Source: Candidatus Obscuribacterales bacterium
GTDB lineage: Bacteria > Cyanobacteriota > Vampirovibrionia > Obscuribacterales > Obscuribacteraceae
Length of the DNA stretch: 32,160 nucleotides
Assembly: GCA_020050835.1 (NCBI GenBank)
Contig: JAGVKB010000144.1
Span: 1 to 32,160, forward strand
Reading direction: 5' to 3'
This document shows, one piece after another, positions 278 to 25,644 of the stretch; position 1 is the first letter of the stretch, and each line of letters opens with the position of its first letter. The position numbers were made by a program, and so were the translations under genes. The notes under the pieces were generated by a model, which did not search any database, was not told where the DNA came from, and was given only the letters and a program-made list of their open reading frames with translations.

Positions 278-556
278 ATGATTCGATCTTTTGGAGACAA
301 GCGGACCGAAGCGCTATTTCAAGATGACTTTGTACGCTACTTCCAGGGGATTGCTAGACATGCTAAGCGGAAGCTGGAAGCGGTAAATGCCGCGAGCCGC
401 TTGGAAGATCTTAGAGTACCGCCTTCAAATCGCCTGGAGAGCCTGAAGGGTAACCTGATTGGGTTTCAGTCAATACGGATTAACGATCAGTGGCGAGTCA
501 TCTTCAAATGGCTTGACGGTGACGCTTATGAGGTACGTATCGTAGATTACCATTGA
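278..556 (+). CDS. higB: HigB-like mRNA interferase toxin (RelE/ParE superfamily)
   Basis: This 92-residue protein has the standard HigB length and layout. It opens MIRSFGDKRTEALFQ, has a basic central helix (about residues 24-45), the conserved stretch LESLKGNL, and the RINDQWRVIFKW strand pair ending in IVDYH. HigB toxins cleave mRNA in association with the ribosome and are neutralised by HigA. The toxin gene comes first, as is typical of higBA and reversed from most toxin-antitoxin pairs. No Shine-Dalgarno can fit before the ATG because the promoter -10 box ends 6 bases upstream, which suggests a leaderless start. The antitoxin gene follows 14 bases after the stop. Confidence 0.9.
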   Translation: MIRSFGDKRTEALFQDDFVRYFQGIARHAKRKLEAVNAASRLEDLRVPPSNRLESLKGNLIGFQSIRINDQWRVIFKWLDGDAYEVRIVDYH

Positions 557-570
557 AAAAAGGAAAGGCA

Positions 571-873
571 ATGACTGACAATGAGTTTGCTCCGGTCACA
601 CCCGGCGAAATGTTGAAGGAAGAGTTTCTGTGCGAATTCGGGCTATCGCAAAATCAGCTGGCAAAGGCAATCGGCATTTCACCCAATCGTATTACCGAGA
701 TAGTAAACAATCGACGGAGAATCACAGCCGATACTGCGTTGCGGCTGGGCTTGTATTTCGGCAACAGCCCCGAATTTTGGATGAACCTTCAGATGCATTA
801 CGATCTCAAAATGGCTCGCCGCAATCTAAAGCCAGAGGACGTCAAACGCATCAAAAGTAAGCGGTCTGCTTAA
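571..873 (+). CDS. higA: HigA-like antitoxin (XRE-family HTH DNA-binding protein)
   Basis: The 100-residue product has the HigA signature: TPGEMLKEEFL near the N-terminus, a helix-turn-helix (LSQNQLAKAIGISPNRITEI), then NNRRRITADTALRLGLYFG and PEFWMNLQ. It should bind HigB and repress the shared promoter at the ATACCG/CGGTAT repeat. A TTG at 553 overlaps the higB stop and would add six residues. ATG 571 is preferred because AAGGAAAG lies about 5-12 bases before it. The C-terminus is lysine- and arginine-rich. It is translationally close to higB and probably co-transcribed from the promoter at 244-271. Confidence 0.9.
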   Translation: MTDNEFAPVTPGEMLKEEFLCEFGLSQNQLAKAIGISPNRITEIVNNRRRITADTALRLGLYFGNSPEFWMNLQMHYDLKMARRNLKPEDVKRIKSKRSA

Positions 874-17102: not shown

Positions 17103-19217
17103 ATGAATATGAGCATGTTGCCCTGGAGCAAGTTTTTCACGAAATGGCATGCGGCGCTATCAATGGTGGTGCCGGCTGCTTTGTTCTTGGCAATCATTGC
17201 CATGGGGTGTCTGTTCACAACTTTCTGTCCCCGCATATTTCAATCGGAAGCGTTGGTCTGGATTCAACCCAAGCTTCCCGTTGAATCGGGTCAGCCGCTT
17301 GTGTACTATCCGCTGGGCTATTCATCTGTTAGTCCGGACAACACTGCCTGCGAGCTTCTGAAATCTAGCCAGTTGGCATCCCAGGCAATCGATTCAGTTA
17401 AGAGTAAATTGCCACCGAGCAGAATTCCAACGGTCAAAGAGTTCCTTACCAATCTCCGTGTCAAGCCAACTGATACTATTCGCGATTCAAACCTGATCGA
17501 ACTTCAGTTTCGTTCTGGCGATGCAAAAGAATCGCAGTTATTACTGCAGGGACTGCTGAACTCCTTTCTCGAGTTTAACAACTCTCAAATGACCGTAATT
17601 TCGGCGCGAAGTCAAAAGCAGGTTGAGGATCAGCTTGCGGCAGCGCAAAGTCGCTGTGATTCTGACAAGAAGGCGCTTGACGAGTTCCAATCCGAAAATG
17701 GTGCGCTTAACCTGCCCGGTCAAGTGGAAGGCATGATTGCTAAGGAAACTCGACTTACCGGCAAAGTCGAAGATTCTAAACTGCGGATCGCGGATCTCAA
17801 AGCGAAAATCGATGCTATCCAATCGCGACTGTACATCACTCCTGACTTGCAGGATGCGGCAAGTCGAGTGCAGAGTGATGAAGTGATAAAGAAGTTGAAA
17901 TCGCTAATTGCCGATGAGGAGCTGGCGATACTCCAGGACAGTGCCAAGTTTCGCAAGGAGCTGCCCAGAACTAAGCGAATAAAGCGAACTGTTGAGCGAA
18001 ACAAGGCGGCTTTAGTTGACCGGGCGCGCGGCATAGCCGGAGAGTCGGGAGTCCGTGTTCTCGAGGGGCAAATGAACGCCTCCGATCCTGTTCAGCAACG
18101 GCTTGCTGAGCAGCTTGCCGATACAAGTTTTGAGTTGGCGGCAGAGGAGTCCAATCTGGCAAAGTGGACTTCATCTGTGGCTGAGATTCGCTACCAACTT
18201 CAAAACATGCCGACTCTTAAACAGCGGGGGGATGCGCTCGCCCAGAAGGCGGAGGGGACAGCGCGAGAGGTTGAGGACTTAAAGTCCAAAGTAGCCTCCA
18301 CTAAGGCTTCCCAGGCGACATCGAAGGGCGCTAACAATATTAGGGTAGTTGACCCACCTTCACTTCCGGACGAAGCAATCTATCCATCCGTCAAACTCTG
18401 TTTGCTGATTACATTGGTGCTTGCAACGGCTATTGCTGGCGCCGGGTACTTCGTGGTCAGGCATTTGCTCAATCCCTTTGTGTCCAGGGCCTCGGAGTTG
18501 AGGCTAGCCTTGGGGTTGCCAGTATTGGGATGGATTGCGTCGAGGCAAGATCAAACTCCGCTTGCAGATCTATCTCAGGCGATGTTGCAGCTTCGCTTGA
18601 ATTGGAAGGAATTGAGGACGGATGGCAAGAAAACCATAGTCGTCTTGGCCACTGATGAATTTGAAGGACAAGCAACGGTAGCCGGTGCCATTGCAGAGAG
18701 TTTCGCGCAAAGTGGGGCACGTGTTGTTCTAGTTGACGCGGACTTTTGGGGTTCGTCGCTATACAGTGTGTTTAAGGTGTCGAAATCCCCTGGGCTTTGT
18801 GAATACCTCGCATCCGGTGATGCAAATCTGCTTACGAAGGTTATTCGGCCTGTCAGGACCAACCTGGGAGTTATCCCGGCTGGTGATCCCCGGGCAAGCT
18901 CCACTGATTTGCAAGCCGCGACTTTCAGGCGGTTGCTTGCACACCTGGAGAATGAAACGGATGTAGTCGTACTCAATGTTCCGCCTATCAGTAAAACTCC
19001 TGAAGCTCTGGCGCTGCTCAATCAGGATGTGTATCTGCTTGTGGTTGCTGCACTCAAAGAGACTCAGATAGACTCCTTGAGTGTCAGCGCAGTGCAGCTC
19101 GAGCATCAGCAGTTTAAGTCCGGCGCGGTTTTCCTGTTCGGAGCCAGTGCCAGTGATTTCACTGCCGCTCGTACCCAGGCGGCTGGAATAGAAGAGCCAA
19201 TCGAAGTGATGATTTAG
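17103..19217 (+). CDS. Wzc/BY-kinase-like chain-length regulator with a degenerate kinase domain
   Basis: The 704-residue protein has an N-terminal membrane helix (about 22-42), a Wzz-type domain, a long coiled-coil region (about 170-410), the proline motif DPPSLPDEAIYPSV before the second helix (about 438-458), and a C-terminal P-loop domain. The kinase motifs are damaged. Walker A reads E521-G-Q523-A524-T where Lys-Ser/Thr is expected. Walker A' keeps D545-A-D547 but continues FWGS. Walker B ends N625-V-P-P instead of D-x-P-P. There is no C-terminal tyrosine cluster. It can still act as a Wzz-like co-polymerase with the divergent Wza, but ATP hydrolysis or tyrosine phosphorylation looks unlikely. 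Start choice between 17103, 17109 and 17115 is open. Confidence 0.85.
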   Translation: MNMSMLPWSKFFTKWHAALSMVVPAALFLAIIAMGCLFTTFCPRIFQSEALVWIQPKLPVESGQPLVYYPLGYSSVSPDNTACELLKSSQLASQAIDSVKSKLPPSRIPTVKEFLTNLRVKPTDTIRDSNLIELQFRSGDAKESQLLLQGLLNSFLEFNNSQMTVISARSQKQVEDQLAAAQSRCDSDKKALDEFQSENGALNLPGQVEGMIAKETRLTGKVEDSKLRIADLKAKIDAIQSRLYITPDLQDAASRVQSDEVIKKLKSLIADEELAILQDSAKFRKELPRTKRIKRTVERNKAALVDRARGIAGESGVRVLEGQMNASDPVQQRLAEQLADTSFELAAEESNLAKWTSSVAEIRYQLQNMPTLKQRGDALAQKAEGTAREVEDLKSKVASTKASQATSKGANNIRVVDPPSLPDEAIYPSVKLCLLITLVLATAIAGAGYFVVRHLLNPFVSRASELRLALGLPVLGWIASRQDQTPLADLSQAMLQLRLNWKELRTDGKKTIVVLATDEFEGQATVAGAIAESFAQSGARVVLVDADFWGSSLYSVFKVSKSPGLCEYLASGDANLLTKVIRPVRTNLGVIPAGDPRASSTDLQAATFRRLLAHLENETDVVVLNVPPISKTPEALALLNQDVYLLVVAALKETQIDSLSVSAVQLEHQQFKSGAVFLFGASASDFTAARTQAAGIEEPIEVMI

Positions 19218-19451: not shown

Positions 19452-22400
19452 ATGAGATGGGGACCCCACAATGCCGGTTTCTTAGCGAGACGCTGCTGGC
19501 AGGTCCTCTTTCTAGTACTGTCGTTGTCTCTGTGCTGTCCATCGTATGCCTTCAGACCGCAGCAAGTCTTACCTGGGTTTCAGTTCAAGTTTCCGGAAGA
19601 CCATGGAGCTCATCCAAGTTTTCGGACCGAGTGGTGGTACTACACCGGTCATCTTTTTACTGTTGACGGCAAGAAGTACGGATTTGAGGTGACCTTTTTT
19701 CGTCAGACCGTTCCTCCTCCTGTTACTGCCTCCAAGAAAGCGAAGGCGGATGAGTCATTGCACATGGTTCATTTCGCCATTACAGACGCTCAAACAGGCG
19801 AATTTTTCAATCGGCAAAAGTATTCCACTTCCGTTACTGGCCACACTGAGCTAGCCAAAGATCGCTTTTTCGTTCGCCATGACAATTGGGCATCGAAGTT
19901 TGAGAACGAAAGATTCTATGTCACTGCCGATACGCCGGAATACGCTATCGATCTCATTCTCACCCCATCCAAGCCGCCGATCGTTCATGGAAAAAATGGC
20001 GTCACGCAGAAGGGCTCATGCGAAGGGTGCGGCTCGCACTATTACTCGATGCCTCGTCTGGAGACTCAAGGAAAGCTCTTTGTCAAAGGTAAGCCGGTTG
20101 CAGTATCCGGAATAACTTGGATGGATCACGAATTTATGAGTGATGCCAAGCTGAACAAAGAAGTTGGCTGGCATTGGTGGTCTATCCAACTTGAAGGTGG
20201 CTCCGACTTCATGCTCTATGAGTTTACCGATACAGCGGGAAAACCTAACGGGTTCTCCTGCGGGGCAATCGTCAATCCGGATGGGACTTACGAAAAAGTA
20301 CAGGCGGGCGATTTCAAAGCGTTTCCACTTTCCGTGTGGAACAGTCCTGTTAGTCATGTTTCCTATCCCACTAGCTGGCTTTTGGTTCTGCCGAAAAAGA
20401 AGATTTTGATGGTAGTGAAGGCAGTCACAGACCACCAGGAGCTTACTACTACGGGAGTCAACTACTTCGAAGGCGACTCGCATGTCATAGCTGGTCACTG
20501 GCGAGACTCAAAAGGAGCCGGAAGTACTGAGCGGAAGCAAGGTCGGTCAAAAGCCTCTAGTGATCCGCTGTCTTCGATGTCGCAGGCTTTCGGAGAGGCA
20601 ATCGAATTTCTTGCGAACTGCCTACAGCCGGCAGCCAATGCGCAGGAAGGCTCGATGACCGTGGGTGCATTCCTGACAGGCACTACTGGCATGGAGCCAC
20701 CTGCCGGAATGGAAAGCCTTGTGAGCGCAGGGGCGACCGTGGAGGAGACGGAAGAGGGCGTCGGATATTCAGAACAATCAGTGCCACCACCTACGACATC
20801 GTCAACATCACCAACGGGACCGACATCGCCAACAGGACCGACGTCGCCGACAGGACCGACGTCACCAACAAGTCCAACGCGGCCTTTAACCGGGCCAGCA
20901 TGGCCGACGAAGCCGACACGCCCAATGACCGGGCCGGCCTGGCCGACAAAGCCGACACGTCCAATGACCGGGCCGGCCTGGCCGACAAAGCCGACACGTC
21001 CAATGACCTGGCCGGCCTGGCCGACAAAGCCGACACGTCCAATGACCTGGCCGGCCTGGCCGACAAAACCGACACGTCCAATGACCTGGCCAGTCTGGCC
21101 GACAAAACCAACGCGTCCTGTGACCTGGCCTGCCTGGCCGACAAAGCCGACACGTCCAATGACCTGGCCTGTCTGGCCGACGAAACCAACGCGGCCTGTG
21201 ACTTGGCCTGCATGGCCGACGAAACCAACGCGGCCTGTGACTTGGCCTGCATGGCCGACGAAACCAACGCGGCCTGTGACTTGGCCTGTCTGGCCGACAA
21301 AACCAACGCGTCCAATGACTGGACCTACGGCGCCGACAAAACCAACGCGGCCTGTGACTTGGCCTGCCTGGCCGACAAAACCAACGCGTCCAATGACCAG
21401 ACCTACGGCGCCGACGAAGCCTACTCAACCCACAAACCCTGCAAAGCTGACCTGGCCGTGGACGGGACCAAATCAGCCCGGGCAACCAACTAATCCATCT
21501 ACGAATCCCCGAATACCGACAGGCTCCACAAACCCTCCCACTGCGCCGAATTCACCGGGGCGGCCATTCGGACCTCCCAGAGGTCGATTCCCGTTGCCAC
21601 CGGGCACTCCACCGACAAGCCCGACTTTCACGCCATCGGAAACGCCTGGTCCGACACTGATTCCACCACCGATTCCAATGCGTCCTCCGATAATTCTTGG
21701 TGAGCAACAGGACGGTACGGTCAAATCCCCAGTAGTTGCCGATTCCTCATTGAGCCCAGCTTTCGGACCTCGCAAATCCCAACAATCCGATTTGATGGTT
21801 CTCAATCAGCCACTGGAGATGGGACGCCTGGCCTTTGCGGGACTTCATGTTGGGAATGGTTGTTTGTGCGGGTCCGGGAGGATTTCAGCGCGTTTGAGCT
21901 CTGTGCCAAAAGAGATGGCACTCTTTGAAGGAAGCAATGTTGATATCAAGAGTGGTAAGGTCGCTGTATCTAAGAAGGACAAGCACGGCACATCGAAGGA
22001 GGTCATGTCTGGAGTCCTCATTGGCGCCAGGCTTAAGGGCAAACCTGACGGATCGGACAAGTCGACTGGAGAGGTTGTGGGAGCCGTTTACTTTAATGGG
22101 GGCAGCTCGATCACGCAGATAACTGATCCGCAGACGGAAGAGCTAATCGACATTAGCGACGGTGGCATTGTAGAAGGGCACATCAAGAAAATAGACGAAA
22201 ATCAAATTGCGGTAGAAACAAAGGATCATCGGACGATGCAGATTGCTCTGAAGGATGTCTGTTCCGTGCACTCGCCATTTTCATTCCTGTTGCGGATTCC
22301 GGTAAAGTTTGACCGCTCAAATCAGGAAAACCAACCATTTATTGCTGATGCCGGCTCAGTCAGTTTTTGCAAGATGGCTGCTGCGCAAACCAGTATCTCC

Positions 22401-23888
22401 AATCAGCGAGAAATCGACGAGCGTAGTCGCCCGAAGACGATGCAATATACTGCGCAGCAACGAATGCCGTCAGTCTTGCGCGAGATCAAGCAGATGCTCC
22501 TTGCCTCTTACAACGGTGAAATTAGGTCCAGCTCAACTTGGTTCCAACCGCTTAAAACTGCTCGGGGCGGTTTGGGATATGGCAGCCGGTCGGCGGCAGC
22601 CATTCGGGGGAAGGGTGCCACAAGGTTGGTTTCGTTTAGCGAAGAGAATCATCAACAACAGTTGAACAACGAAGAATCAGCCTGGAATCAGAATTTCCTG
22701 GACTGGTGGAAGAATGAAGGGACGTGGCTGAAGAGGGGCAGTAATGCTCGAATTGTCTACCTCCACGAGAAAGGGTTGCCGGCGGCTGCTCTGGACGTGG
22801 AGCGAAAGAAGTGGGGGACTGTCCTGGGGAATGTGCAGAACGTCTTGAGGGGAATTGATCAGCTTACTGGAAGGTACGCAGCGGTGGTTGAGAATGCATT
22901 GCCGGCTAAATTTGCCGATAGCGGAACAATCATTAGTATGTGTCGCTCAGACGGCGCAGACTTTTGCACTATGCGCTTGAAGAGTGATGGCGGGCGATAC
23001 GTCAATGTCAATGTACCTGCGAAATGTCAGGGTCTAAAGTGCAGGGTCGGCTCAAGAGTCCGCATTGCAGGAGTGGAAACGTTGCCTGAATGGGTAAACG
23101 CATCACCAGCCGATATTACACACATGGAAGGTACGCGGGCCGGGGCTATCACAATTCAGCGAGCTGTGGCGGAAAGGAAGCTTGGATTTGCCTTGAGGGG
23201 AGACGGTGTAGATACGGCAAATTGCCGGATAATGCTCGTTAATGAATCTTGTTTGCCAATGAGTATTGTTATACCCAAAGGGCAATTCTTCATTCCGGAC
23301 AAACGTTCGTTTCAGATCATGATGATTACGGAAGACCGGGTCATCGAGCTGCCTGGTGGCATGTCCTATTGGGTCAACATCCCAACTTTGTGTGTGTCTG
23401 GCAAGAAGGCTAACCGCCCGCCTCCCGGAGGAGTGTGTTATCTCCCCGCTTGTTACCCGGATGCTCGACTTGGTAGGTTGCTGCCAAGATTCTGGGAGAT
23501 GGCGGAGAACCTAGAAAGGTGCAATGTCCTTCAGAGTCTGAATATCTCTCCCTCCAATCGGGCCAACAAGGTTGCACAGGCTGCAATCTGGAATGAGTTG
23601 TCCAGATCTCAACATCGAGTGGATGAAGAGCTATCTATTAAGACTGTGGCTTCTGATCTTGGAATCAACTTTCTCGCGAGTGCTGAGCATACAGGGGAAA
23701 GTGCCGATTCTGACAGTGAATATGTACTAGCAGCAGTAGATCTTGTCACTTCCTTGAGCAAGCAACTTGTAACGCAGCAGGGGCAATCCGTTGGTGGTAA
23801 AGATCGCTTAAATCTGCTCAGAGCATATGGGACTGGCCAAAGAGAGTTACCCGAGACTCGCCGTGAGCCGTGTGTTAATTGTCTGTAG
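19452..23888 (+). CDS. Secreted AttH/CrtC-like domain fused by a proline-rich repeat stalk to a large novel C-terminal region
   Basis: The 1478-residue protein has a signal peptide (basic LARR, hydrophobic VLFLVLSLSL, likely cleavage near residue 33). Residues 38-355 resemble the AttH/carotenoid 1,2-hydratase (CrtC) lipocalin-like fold: E60-W-W-Y-Y-T-G-H, GFEVTFFRQ, and WMDHEF near 223. Residues about 443-750 are rich in Pro, Thr and Trp: SPTGPT units, then 14 units of a 13-residue repeat (481-662), then mixed proline-rich sequence. Residues 750-1478 are unfamiliar, with beta-rich stretches and several Cys; 1257-1330 looks like a beta-sandwich (LVNESCLPMSIVIPKG). It is probably a surface or periplasmic protein. 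Role unknown; it begins an operon with the HTTM pair 20 bases downstream. Confidence 0.75.
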   Translation: MRWGPHNAGFLARRCWQVLFLVLSLSLCCPSYAFRPQQVLPGFQFKFPEDHGAHPSFRTEWWYYTGHLFTVDGKKYGFEVTFFRQTVPPPVTASKKAKADESLHMVHFAITDAQTGEFFNRQKYSTSVTGHTELAKDRFFVRHDNWASKFENERFYVTADTPEYAIDLILTPSKPPIVHGKNGVTQKGSCEGCGSHYYSMPRLETQGKLFVKGKPVAVSGITWMDHEFMSDAKLNKEVGWHWWSIQLEGGSDFMLYEFTDTAGKPNGFSCGAIVNPDGTYEKVQAGDFKAFPLSVWNSPVSHVSYPTSWLLVLPKKKILMVVKAVTDHQELTTTGVNYFEGDSHVIAGHWRDSKGAGSTERKQGRSKASSDPLSSMSQAFGEAIEFLANCLQPAANAQEGSMTVGAFLTGTTGMEPPAGMESLVSAGATVEETEEGVGYSEQSVPPPTTSSTSPTGPTSPTGPTSPTGPTSPTSPTRPLTGPAWPTKPTRPMTGPAWPTKPTRPMTGPAWPTKPTRPMTWPAWPTKPTRPMTWPAWPTKPTRPMTWPVWPTKPTRPVTWPAWPTKPTRPMTWPVWPTKPTRPVTWPAWPTKPTRPVTWPAWPTKPTRPVTWPVWPTKPTRPMTGPTAPTKPTRPVTWPAWPTKPTRPMTRPTAPTKPTQPTNPAKLTWPWTGPNQPGQPTNPSTNPRIPTGSTNPPTAPNSPGRPFGPPRGRFPLPPGTPPTSPTFTPSETPGPTLIPPPIPMRPPIILGEQQDGTVKSPVVADSSLSPAFGPRKSQQSDLMVLNQPLEMGRLAFAGLHVGNGCLCGSGRISARLSSVPKEMALFEGSNVDIKSGKVAVSKKDKHGTSKEVMSGVLIGARLKGKPDGSDKSTGEVVGAVYFNGGSSITQITDPQTEELIDISDGGIVEGHIKKIDENQIAVETKDHRTMQIALKDVCSVHSPFSFLLRIPVKFDRSNQENQPFIADAGSVSFCKMAAAQTSISNQREIDERSRPKTMQYTAQQRMPSVLREIKQMLLASYNGEIRSSSTWFQPLKTARGGLGYGSRSAAAIRGKGATRLVSFSEENHQQQLNNEESAWNQNFLDWWKNEGTWLKRGSNARIVYLHEKGLPAAALDVERKKWGTVLGNVQNVLRGIDQLTGRYAAVVENALPAKFADSGTIISMCRSDGADFCTMRLKSDGGRYVNVNVPAKCQGLKCRVGSRVRIAGVETLPEWVNASPADITHMEGTRAGAITIQRAVAERKLGFALRGDGVDTANCRIMLVNESCLPMSIVIPKGQFFIPDKRSFQIMMITEDRVIELPGGMSYWVNIPTLCVSGKKANRPPPGGVCYLPACYPDARLGRLLPRFWEMAENLERCNVLQSLNISPSNRANKVAQAAIWNELSRSQHRVDEELSIKTVASDLGINFLASAEHTGESADSDSEYVLAAVDLVTSLSKQLVTQQGQSVGGKDRLNLLRAYGTGQRELPETRREPCVNCL
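20806..20875 (+). repeat. 18-bp direct repeats encoding SPTGPT
   Basis: Just before the 39-bp array the gene has three imperfect 18-bp units plus a partial one, each encoding SPTGPT. Differences between units are mostly third-position changes (for example CCA/CCG and ACA/ACG). It forms the start of the proline-rich stalk. Confidence 0.6.
20892..21437 (+). repeat. 39-bp tandem repeat array, 14 units, encoding a 13-residue Pro/Trp/Thr repeat
   Basis: Thirteen good units and one degenerate unit encode the consensus (G/W)P(A/V)WPTKPTRP(M/V)T in the frame of the host gene. The unit is a multiple of three, so all forward frames stay open, as do two reverse frames. Units differ mainly at third positions of the host frame (ACA/ACG, CCG/CCA, CGT/CGG, ACC/ACT), which keeps the 13-residue motif and supports that frame as coding. 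Such arrays change copy number by slippage or recombination, so stalk length may vary between strains. The last units lose the motif (GPTAPTKP, RPTAPTKPTQPTN). Confidence 0.9.
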
Positions 23889-23908
23889 CCACGGGCGGAA
23901 ATAGGTAG

Positions 23909-24445
23909 ATGCTGCAAAAGTGCTATAAGACTGTGGTTTCTCTGGCTCTTGTCTGGCACTTCAGCGGTATTTTGATTTGGCTTTCTCCGGCCAATCCGTT
24001 GCAGGAGCAGTTAATAGGGCCATTCGTATGGTATCTCAACTATTTCGGGCTATGGCAGAGTTGGGCGCTCTTTGTCTCACCACATATGGTGAATTATTAC
24101 ATGACCGCAATGGTCAAGTTTCGCGATGGTACGGTGCAGACATGGGAATTTCCCCGCCCGGAGAAGATGGGATATCTCGAACGGATGTTCAAGGAGCGTT
24201 ATCGCCAATGGGGAGTTGATGCCCTTAACAGCGATGCCGAGTCATATTTGCGGCCGGACGCGGCGAGGTATATTGCCCGCCTACACAACACCGATCCGAA
24301 CAATCCGCCGGTGCGTGTTTGCATAATTCGTCATTGGACCTACATTCCGCCGCCGGAAGAAGGGCTTGGTAAGCCGCTACCGGCAGAAGAGGATGGGCAG
24401 GAAGTGATCTTCGACACTGATGTCCAGCCGGGAGATCTCTCATGA
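23909..24445 (+). CDS. Small membrane-anchored protein paired with the HTTM gene
   Basis: The 178-residue protein has one or two N-terminal hydrophobic segments (about 6-25, and weaker around 38-58), then a soluble part with MVNYYMTAMVKFRDGTVQTWEFPRPEKMGYLERMF and VRVCIIRHWTYIPPP. I do not recognise a named family. Similar short proteins are known beside HTTM genes, and the FxDGTxxxWxFP pattern suggests a conserved fold. An AGGTAG lies shortly before ATG 23909. It overlaps the HTTM gene by ATGA, so the two products are probably made in step and may form a complex. It follows the giant secreted protein by 20 bases. Confidence 0.6.
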   Translation: MLQKCYKTVVSLALVWHFSGILIWLSPANPLQEQLIGPFVWYLNYFGLWQSWALFVSPHMVNYYMTAMVKFRDGTVQTWEFPRPEKMGYLERMFKERYRQWGVDALNSDAESYLRPDAARYIARLHNTDPNNPPVRVCIIRHWTYIPPPEEGLGKPLPAEEDGQEVIFDTDVQPGDLS

Positions 24446-25644
24446 CGCTGCGTTTGCTTTGCTCTCTATGGGACAAATTCTGGTTCGCACCACAATCACC
24501 AATTCCTGTCTGTCTATTTCGAATCGCATTGGGATTGGTGCTGCTTGAATGGTGTTGGCTGACTGCGCCTGAGTTGCTTACTTGCTATAGCGATAACGGC
24601 ATTTTGCGCATTAAGACTCTTCAGAATGTTACTGCGTTTCCAGTTCTTGACCTGATCACAATCCTTCCACCGGGAGACAGCTGGGTAATTGCGTTCTTTG
24701 GCGTTTTTGTTATAGCGTCGCTGTTCCTCACATTCGGTCTGTTTACCAGATTGAGCACTATCATTGTTTACTTGTGCCTGGTGTCATTCGATCATCGCAA
24801 TATCATGGTCAATCACGCCGGGGTAAAACTAATGTGCCTGGCTGCGTTCTATCTGATGTTTGCTCCAGCCGATGCGGCTTTGTCCTTAGACCGAATCAGG
24901 AGAATCTGGTCGCGTCGGATTGCGCCCCCCAGAACTGCTCAAGCGATTGTGCTTTGGTCAATGCGAGCCTTTCAGTGTCAATGGGTGCTACTTTACCTTC
25001 ATTCGTTCTGGTCCAAGTTGGCTTCGCCGGTATGGTGGGATGGCACTGCGCTTTACTATGTTATGCGTACTCCGGAGTTCAGCCGATTTCCTGTTCCACT
25101 CTTGGCCGACAATATGTTGTTATGCAACATCGCTACCTGGGGGACGCTCCTTATCGAAGGAGCAGCCTGGACCTTTATCTATTTCAAGGAGACAAGATAT
25201 CTAGTCTTGGGTTCGGTTTTCTTGCTTCACTTGGGCATCGAATATGCGCTCAATATTCCAATGTTCGAGCACATAATGTTCGTCAGCCTCATTGTATTTA
25301 TTTATCCTGAAGACCTCACCAGGCTCATGGACAGGACAAAGATCAAGATAGCAGACTGGTTCGGTTCTCCAGCAATTCTGACATTCGATGGTGCGGTGCC
25401 AGTCCAGGCGAAATGGGCGAGGACTTTCGAGCAGCTAGACATTCTGGGCCGGCTTTCGCTAGTCGATATTGCTGTTCCTGAAAGCCGAGATACGCTTCCT
25501 TCGCCGCTTCCGGAAGACGGCGGTAGTGGTTTGCTGTTGTTCTGCCGTGGAGAATGGTTGTCTAGCTCTGATACTAAGCGAGCGCTTTGCGCACGTCTGC
25601 CTTTGTGCTGGCCTCTCTATCCGGTACTTGCTCTTTTGAGCTAG
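24442..25644 (+). CDS. HTTM-domain (vitamin K gamma-carboxylase-like) membrane protein with a cysteine-less DCC-like tail
   Basis: The 400-residue protein has the HTTM core: PIPVCLFRIALGLVLLEWCW, then SFDHRNIMVNHAGVKLMCLAAFYLMF and YLHSFWSKLASPVWWDGTALYYVM, the last a family hallmark. HTTM proteins are related to gamma-glutamyl carboxylase; most bacterial members have unknown substrates. The tail (from about residue 311) reads LTFDGAVPVQAKWARTFEQLD and ends RALCARLPLCWPLYPVLAL, which follows the DUF393/DCC thioredoxin-like pattern. There the usual DGxCxxC is DGAVPVQA, so both active cysteines are missing. The start overlaps the upstream stop. Last gene of the three-gene block. Confidence 0.75.
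   Translation: MTLRLLCSLWDKFWFAPQSPIPVCLFRIALGLVLLEWCWLTAPELLTCYSDNGILRIKTLQNVTAFPVLDLITILPPGDSWVIAFFGVFVIASLFLTFGLFTRLSTIIVYLCLVSFDHRNIMVNHAGVKLMCLAAFYLMFAPADAALSLDRIRRIWSRRIAPPRTAQAIVLWSMRAFQCQWVLLYLHSFWSKLASPVWWDGTALYYVMRTPEFSRFPVPLLADNMLLCNIATWGTLLIEGAAWTFIYFKETRYLVLGSVFLLHLGIEYALNIPMFEHIMFVSLIVFIYPEDLTRLMDRTKIKIADWFGSPAILTFDGAVPVQAKWARTFEQLDILGRLSLVDIAVPESRDTLPSPLPEDGGSGLLLFCRGEWLSSSDTKRALCARLPLCWPLYPVLALLS

What the first reader, a model, noticed from the sequence alone, without database searches (positions are those of the whole stretch)
19452..25644. Three-gene block: giant secreted AttH/CrtC-like protein, small partner and HTTM membrane protein
Gaps of 20 and -4 bases indicate one operon. 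HTTM proteins descend from the same group as gamma-glutamyl carboxylase, which modifies secreted proteins. Here the HTTM gene is coupled to a small anchored protein and follows a large secreted repeat protein. One inference is that the HTTM pair modifies or helps secrete the giant protein; another is that all three act on a lipid or the EPS. I know of no described system with this gene set.
Basis: partly seen in the sequence, partly recalled or inferred. Interest (0 to 1): 0.72.

Follow-up and report, generated by a model that had tools for sequence, protein, structure and literature searches.

The report
Carboxylase-like membrane pair beside surface protein
Two overlapping genes encode a bacterial relative of the human vitamin K carboxylase and an unnamed small partner that travel together across genomes, probably to modify exported surface proteins; the giant gene beside them is a separate polysaccharide-locus protein that sits next to the pair only in this genome.

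Summary
All three ORFs are real. The window comes from a Candidatus Obscuribacterales (non-photosynthetic Cyanobacteriota) genome. Genes 2 and 3 form a true two-gene module: across 60 relatives, 92 of 107 homologues of the small protein have an HTTM gene directly downstream (median gap about 7 nt), all 8 copies in the host genome are paired, the two proteins co-vary (r = 0.80), and fused forms occur outside the family, in both orders. The HTTM protein matches human gamma-glutamyl carboxylase across its HTTM domain and keeps its catalytic lysine (K218 = K192, 81/82), but not the Glu-binding histidine. The small protein matches no Pfam, NCBIfam or PDB family.

The giant AttH/CrtC protein is not part of a conserved trio. 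A relative carries its counterpart in the same polysaccharide-kinase setting without the pair, and CrtC stands alone elsewhere. However, other pairs lie beside Pro-rich repeat proteins or TadE/TadG-like pseudopilins more often than random stretches do.

Best reading: a VKGC-like maturation module, comparable with SdpA/SdpB but a member of neither, that modifies exported surface proteins. The giant is a possible, unproven substrate. Chemistry and substrate remain inference.

The parts
23909..24445 (+). 178-aa partner of HTTM: N-terminal membrane helix plus outward alpha/beta domain with motif GL-Q-W--F-P-P----A-V-F-DG----W-FPR
   Evidence: No family in Pfam or NCBIfam; 8 own-genome and about 100 relatives' homologues; 92/107 directly upstream of an HTTM gene; model pLDDT 77
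24442..25644 (+). HTTM membrane protein, relative of the membrane domain of gamma-glutamyl carboxylase
   Evidence: PF05090 68.3 bits, cut-off 27.7; human GGCX E 1.2e-16
25015..25017 (+). Codon of K192, aligned with the catalytic base K218 of GGCX
   Evidence: Lys in 81 of 82 homologues; role of K218 from PMC12589487
25381..25629 (+). Degenerate DCC1-like (thioredoxin-type) C-terminal tail; DG-CP-C motif reads DGAVPVQ
   Evidence: Weak, E 0.062, below cut-off; present in 4 of 8 own paralogues
19452..23888 (+). Giant exported protein: signal peptide, CrtC/AttH lipocalin pair, Pro-rich repeats, domains d1 and d3. Neighbour of the pair; belongs to the polysaccharide locus
19626..20522 (+). CrtC N-terminal lipocalin and Lipocalin_9 domains of the giant (residues 59-357)
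   Evidence: Pfam; 2ich AttH
20874..21398 (+). 39-bp tandem repeat, 13.5 copies, coding Pro-Thr-Arg/Lys-Trp repeats
   Evidence: Tandem Repeats Finder
21849..22451 (+). Domain d1 of the giant, shared with PT-repeat proteins beside orthologous pairs in other genera
   Evidence: hhalign Prob 98.2, E 3.7e-14
23127..23861 (+). C-terminal domain d3 of the giant, shared with own C111 protein (40%) and G034
   Evidence: BLAST
17103..19217 (+). Context: polysaccharide chain-length/tyrosine-kinase type protein preceding the giant, as in own C111 and G034
   Evidence: NCBIfam matches below cut-off, best E 2.1e-29; synteny

Best explanation
The small protein and the HTTM protein form one two-gene module, present 8 times in this genome, that works at the outer face of the cytoplasmic membrane. 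The HTTM part is a relative of the membrane domain of gamma-glutamyl carboxylase. It probably binds a reduced quinone and uses the conserved lysine K192 to deprotonate it, driving a chemical modification. The small protein, held by one membrane helix, probably does what the lumenal domain does in the human enzyme: it holds or recruits the exported substrate. Substrates are probably exported surface proteins (Pro/Gly-rich repeat proteins, TadE/TadG-like pseudopilins, TPR proteins) encoded beside individual copies; here the neighbour is a CrtC-repeat protein of the polysaccharide locus. Shown: pairing, co-inheritance, fusions, homology to GGCX, conserved lysine, enrichment beside exported repeat proteins. 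Inferred: quinone use, the chemistry, the substrate, and whether the giant is modified.
For: All 8 own HTTM copies have the small gene directly upstream. 92 of 107 small homologues in relatives are followed by HTTM, median gap about 7 nt. Distances co-vary, Mantel r 0.80, permutation maximum 0.14. Fusions: HTTM then small domain in L163, L164, L168; small then HTTM in one frame in L175; pair in the acidobacterium Silvibacterium. GGCX match E 1e-16 with K218, W223, H287, F299 kept. Pair loci versus 40 random stretches: Pro-rich repeat ORFs 15/78 vs 0/40 (p 0.002), TadG-like 35/78 vs 0/40, TadE-like 36/78 vs 0/40. A repeat protein + small + HTTM trio is conserved between G000 C121 and G006 (61% identity). 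SdpA/SdpB, a similar pair, process a secreted protein (PMC6818787).
Against: No direct evidence of any reaction or substrate. Neighbours are varied, and about half of the pairs have no Tad or repeat protein nearby. Pair loci are partly orthologous, so the enrichment p-values are too optimistic. The giant's counterpart in G034 lives without an adjacent pair. No VKOR in the genome to recycle a quinone epoxide. The small protein matches no known fold.
Confidence: 0.45

Rival explanations
1. The pair acts on a lipid, quinone or polysaccharide intermediate in the membrane rather than on a protein; the window's copy serves the surrounding polysaccharide locus.
For: The window is a polysaccharide locus (export protein, flippase, O-antigen ligase, glycosyltransferases). 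One own-genome copy of the small domain is fused to a GT-C-type membrane protein.
Against: Most other pairs are not in polysaccharide loci; neighbours are pseudopilins, TPR proteins and repeat proteins.
Confidence: 0.2
2. One reading: this HTTM pair is dedicated to modifying or secreting the giant CrtC protein.
For: Gaps of 20 and -4 nt, same strand. Two other own-genome pairs also follow large repeat proteins at 8 and 121 nt. Domain d1 of the giant also occurs in PT-repeat proteins beside orthologous pairs in four genomes.
Against: G034 has the CrtC-giant without an adjacent pair; CrtC alone in most relatives; orthologous pairs in G003, G004, G014 follow an unrelated helical secreted protein.
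Confidence: 0.15
3. A true bacterial gamma-glutamyl carboxylase that makes Gla on surface proteins.
For: Whole-domain homology and conserved catalytic lysine.
Against: Glu-pocket His160 is Gly in 69 of 82 and Asn159 is not kept; no VKOR in the genome and no co-occurrence with it; no lumenal domain detectable by sequence in the small protein.
Confidence: 0.07
4. An SdpABC-type bacteriocin or cannibalism locus in which the pair matures a peptide toxin.
For: Same gene order and sizes as sdpA-sdpB; weak SdpB profile match (E 2.1e-7). SdpA and SdpB are required to process a secreted precursor.
Against: SdpB score 30.9 against a cut-off of 178.4; no SdpA match in the 8 paralogues or the genome, while B. 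subtilis rings as control. The neighbour is a 1478-aa lipocalin-repeat protein, not a 203-aa precursor with a hydrophobic C-terminus.
Confidence: 0.05

Closest known systems
Gamma-glutamyl carboxylase (GGCX/VKGC), human
   Same: HTTM domain homologous over about 290 residues; catalytic Lys218, Trp223, His287 and mostly Phe299 kept
   Different: Glu-pocket His160 and Asn159 and coupling Lys217 not kept; no fused lumenal domain, instead a separate small gene of unknown fold; no VKOR in the genome
SdpA/SdpB of Bacillus subtilis sdpABC (and yitPOM)
   Same: Small gene followed by HTTM-type gene next to an exported protein; the pair is required for processing of a secreted protein in Bacillus
   Different: Curated SdpA and SdpB models not met; the exported gene is upstream, very large and unrelated to SdpC
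CrtC/AttH lipocalin-like proteins (PF07143/PF17186, PDB 2ich)
   Same: N-terminal 360 residues of the giant
   Different: Relatives are mostly stand-alone proteins of about 380 aa; here fused to Pro-rich repeats and two unnamed domains

Membership tests
HTTM family (PF05090) | Score above the curated cut-off | tested here: met
   68.3 bits against 27.7
Gamma-glutamyl carboxylase (VKGC) | Homologous membrane domain with catalytic lysine K218 | tested here: met
   E 1.2e-16; K192 in 81/82
Gamma-glutamyl carboxylase (VKGC) | Glu-binding pocket (N159, H160) | tested here: not met
   Positions are Gly/Ser/Ala and Gly in most homologues
Gamma-glutamyl carboxylase (VKGC) | Propeptide-binding lumenal domain | tested here: inconclusive
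   Absent from the HTTM protein; the small protein may replace it but shows no sequence or fold match; model confidence moderate
Gamma-glutamyl carboxylase (VKGC) | Makes Gla, coupled to vitamin K epoxidation | not testable with these tools
   Needs biochemistry
SdpB (TIGR04033) | Score above the curated cut-off | tested here: not met
   30.9 against 178.4 bits
SdpA (TIGR04034) | Match to the curated model | tested here: not met
   No match among 8 paralogues at E 10 or in the genome at E 1; B. subtilis positive. A profile-profile test was not possible
CrtC/AttH | CrtC and Lipocalin_9 domains above cut-off | tested here: met
   163.5 and 89.6 bits
Three-gene system of the finding | Giant, small protein and HTTM together in other genomes | tested here: not met
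   Pair conserved; the giant is not next to a pair in sampled relatives

The most novel reading that the evidence does not exclude
A widespread split carboxylase-like system: a quinol-driven HTTM enzyme plus a detached, previously unnamed substrate-handling subunit, which installs an unknown modification on bacterial surface proteins such as collagen-like or Pro-rich repeat proteins and Tad pseudopilins, by a reaction different from Gla formation.
Probability: 0.3. Interest if true: 0.85.

Novelty: new variant of a known kind. Interest (0 to 1): 0.55.

Why it matters
To my knowledge the function of bacterial HTTM proteins is largely unknown although they are relatives of a key human enzyme. 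An obligate small partner with a clear motif, fused forms, eight copies in one genome and recurrent exported neighbours gives a concrete pair to express and a short list of candidate substrates, and so makes the question testable.

Tried and rejected
Trio as a conserved system: rejected by G034 and the stand-alone CrtC proteins. SdpA/SdpB membership: rejected by curated models. Small protein as the GGCX lumenal domain by sequence or fold: no support, but low power. HTTM structure model: pLDDT 49, not used. VKOR as a sign of a vitamin K cycle: absent from the host genome and no correlation. C-terminal domains of the C121/C123 repeat proteins as homologues of the giant's domains: hhalign negative. 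Their FecR-like C-terminal domain as a specific partner: it occurs many times per genome ('FecR-like' is my impression, not a Pfam match). Searches of genome contigs with A2 and A4 failed for lack of conserved stretches; a narrower alignment worked. Literature searches for HTTM gave mainly GGCX reviews.

Full report
Observation. The last two overlap by four bases and the first gap is 20 bases. The first carries CrtC and Lipocalin_9 domains and matches the AttH structure 2ich, followed by a 39-bp repeat in 13.5 copies and about 700 residues without a named domain. The third is an HTTM protein with a weak C-terminal DCC1-like tail (E 0.062) in which the usual cysteines appear to be replaced. The second has no family in Pfam or NCBIfam.

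Origin. The best named relatives of the HTTM gene are Candidatus Obscuribacterales contigs, so the window is from non-photosynthetic Cyanobacteriota. The genome, G000, has 7.0 Mb in 154 contigs.

The pair. G000 holds eight strong HTTM copies and each has a homologue of the small protein directly upstream. Profiles of both proteins were run over 60 relatives. Of 107 small-protein hits 92 are followed on the same strand by an HTTM hit, with median gap about 7 nt; some exceptions are at contig ends and others are extra small genes next to a pair. The pairwise distances of the two proteins correlate at r = 0.80 over 78 pairs, against at most 0.14 in 2000 permutations. Outside the family the two are sometimes one protein: HTTM followed by the small-like domain in L163, L164 and L168, and in the opposite order in one open frame of L175. 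Silvibacterium bohemicum (Acidobacteriota) has the pair with a four-base overlap. In one own-genome copy the small domain is fused to a GT-C-type membrane protein. This is a real, old, two-component module.

The HTTM protein as a carboxylase relative. A profile of the eight own-genome HTTM proteins finds human GGCX chains in the PDB with E about 1e-16 over the whole domain. Mapping the residues described in PMC12589487: catalytic base K218 is K192 here and Lys in 81 of 82 homologues; W223 and H287 are invariant; F299 is kept in 76; the Glu-pocket His160 is Gly in 69 and Asn159 is lost; K217, which couples substrate binding, is not kept. So the part that handles the quinone is retained and the part that handles glutamate is not. 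The host genome lacks a detectable VKOR. I infer a quinol-dependent enzyme with a different target, not a Gla-forming carboxylase.

The small protein. The AlphaFold model (8 sequences, pLDDT 77, pTM 0.58) gives an N-terminal helix and an alpha/beta domain. Foldseek found no convincing match in the PDB and the family profile matches no solved chain. The positive charges before the helix suggest that the domain faces outward, the side on which the active site of GGCX also lies (inference).

The giant. Single CrtC proteins of about 380 aa occur in most relatives, away from HTTM genes. The fused CrtC-repeat-C-terminal form has a counterpart in G034: L070 has the same kinase gene followed by CrtC fused to the d1 domain, and L162 has the C-terminal half followed by other genes and no pair. 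That these two contigs hold one gene is presumed, not shown. In G000 a second polysaccharide locus (C111) has the same order (Wza-like, kinase, CrtC, 1477-aa protein), with CrtC separate, and stops at the contig end. The giant therefore belongs to the polysaccharide locus, and its place beside the pair is particular to this genome among those I could sample.

Wider neighbourhood. Although this trio is not conserved, exported repeat proteins recur beside pairs: GPT repeats (C123), GPTNPT repeats (C121), TTPTGP repeats (G006, orthologous to C121 at 61%), PT-repeat proteins with the d1 domain (G003, G004, G007, G014; d1 homology Prob 98) and collagen-like GGP proteins in several genera. Against 40 random stretches of about 14.5 kb, pair loci have more Pro-rich repeat ORFs (15/78 vs 0/40, p 0.002), TadG-like (35/78 vs 0/40) and TadE-like proteins (36/78 vs 0/40) (the Tad family was confirmed by Pfam for one TadG-like member only). 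These loci are partly orthologous and the protein clusters were chosen from the same data, so the p-values overstate the case. The window itself has no TadE/TadG-like gene.

Mechanism. The best-supported account is a surface-protein maturation module: HTTM supplies quinol-driven chemistry in the membrane and the small protein binds the exported substrate. It works like GGCX in its catalytic base, and like SdpA/SdpB in gene order and, by analogy, in acting on a secreted protein (PMC6818787). It is a member of neither: the Glu-pocket test fails for GGCX, and the curated cut-offs fail for SdpA and SdpB. Homology, pairing and the conserved lysine are shown; quinone use, substrate and reaction are inferred.

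Verdict. The pair is a new variant of a known kind with an unnamed obligate partner. Interest is moderate: the function is open, but now testable.

Noticed in passing
L031:4920-6920 (G000 contig C123): The small HTTM partner is fused to the C-terminus of a GT-C/PMT-like membrane glycosyltransferase (666 aa, PMT_2 E 8e-9), directly upstream of an HTTM gene.
   Followed up: partly
Pair loci of relatives (e.g. L089, L138, L150): TadE/TadG-like pseudopilin genes lie near HTTM pairs in about 45% of loci (35-36 of 78) and in none of 40 random stretches.
   Followed up: partly
window 278-873: Two short overlapping ORFs look like a HigB/HigA-type toxin-antitoxin pair (by eye, no family search).
   Followed up: no
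L036 (G000 contig C111, 8000-19168): Second polysaccharide locus with the same order as the window (Wza-like, tyrosine kinase, CrtC, 1477-aa protein); CrtC is a separate gene in the same frame as the next ORF, and the contig ends about 280 bases after it.
   Followed up: partly
Many contigs of family f1: The C-terminal domain of the C121 repeat protein recurs in very large ORFs (up to about 8,600 aa), in dozens of copies in some genomes such as G017.
   Followed up: no
window 20791-21493: The 39-bp repeat leaves long open frames on both strands (e.g. 20791-21315 and 20886-21485 minus, 20900-21493 plus); these are frame echoes of the repeat, not evidence of genes.
   Followed up: yes
L174:8459-9975: Silvibacterium bohemicum (Acidobacteriota, a cultured strain) carries the same small-HTTM pair, which would suit laboratory work.
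   Followed up: partly
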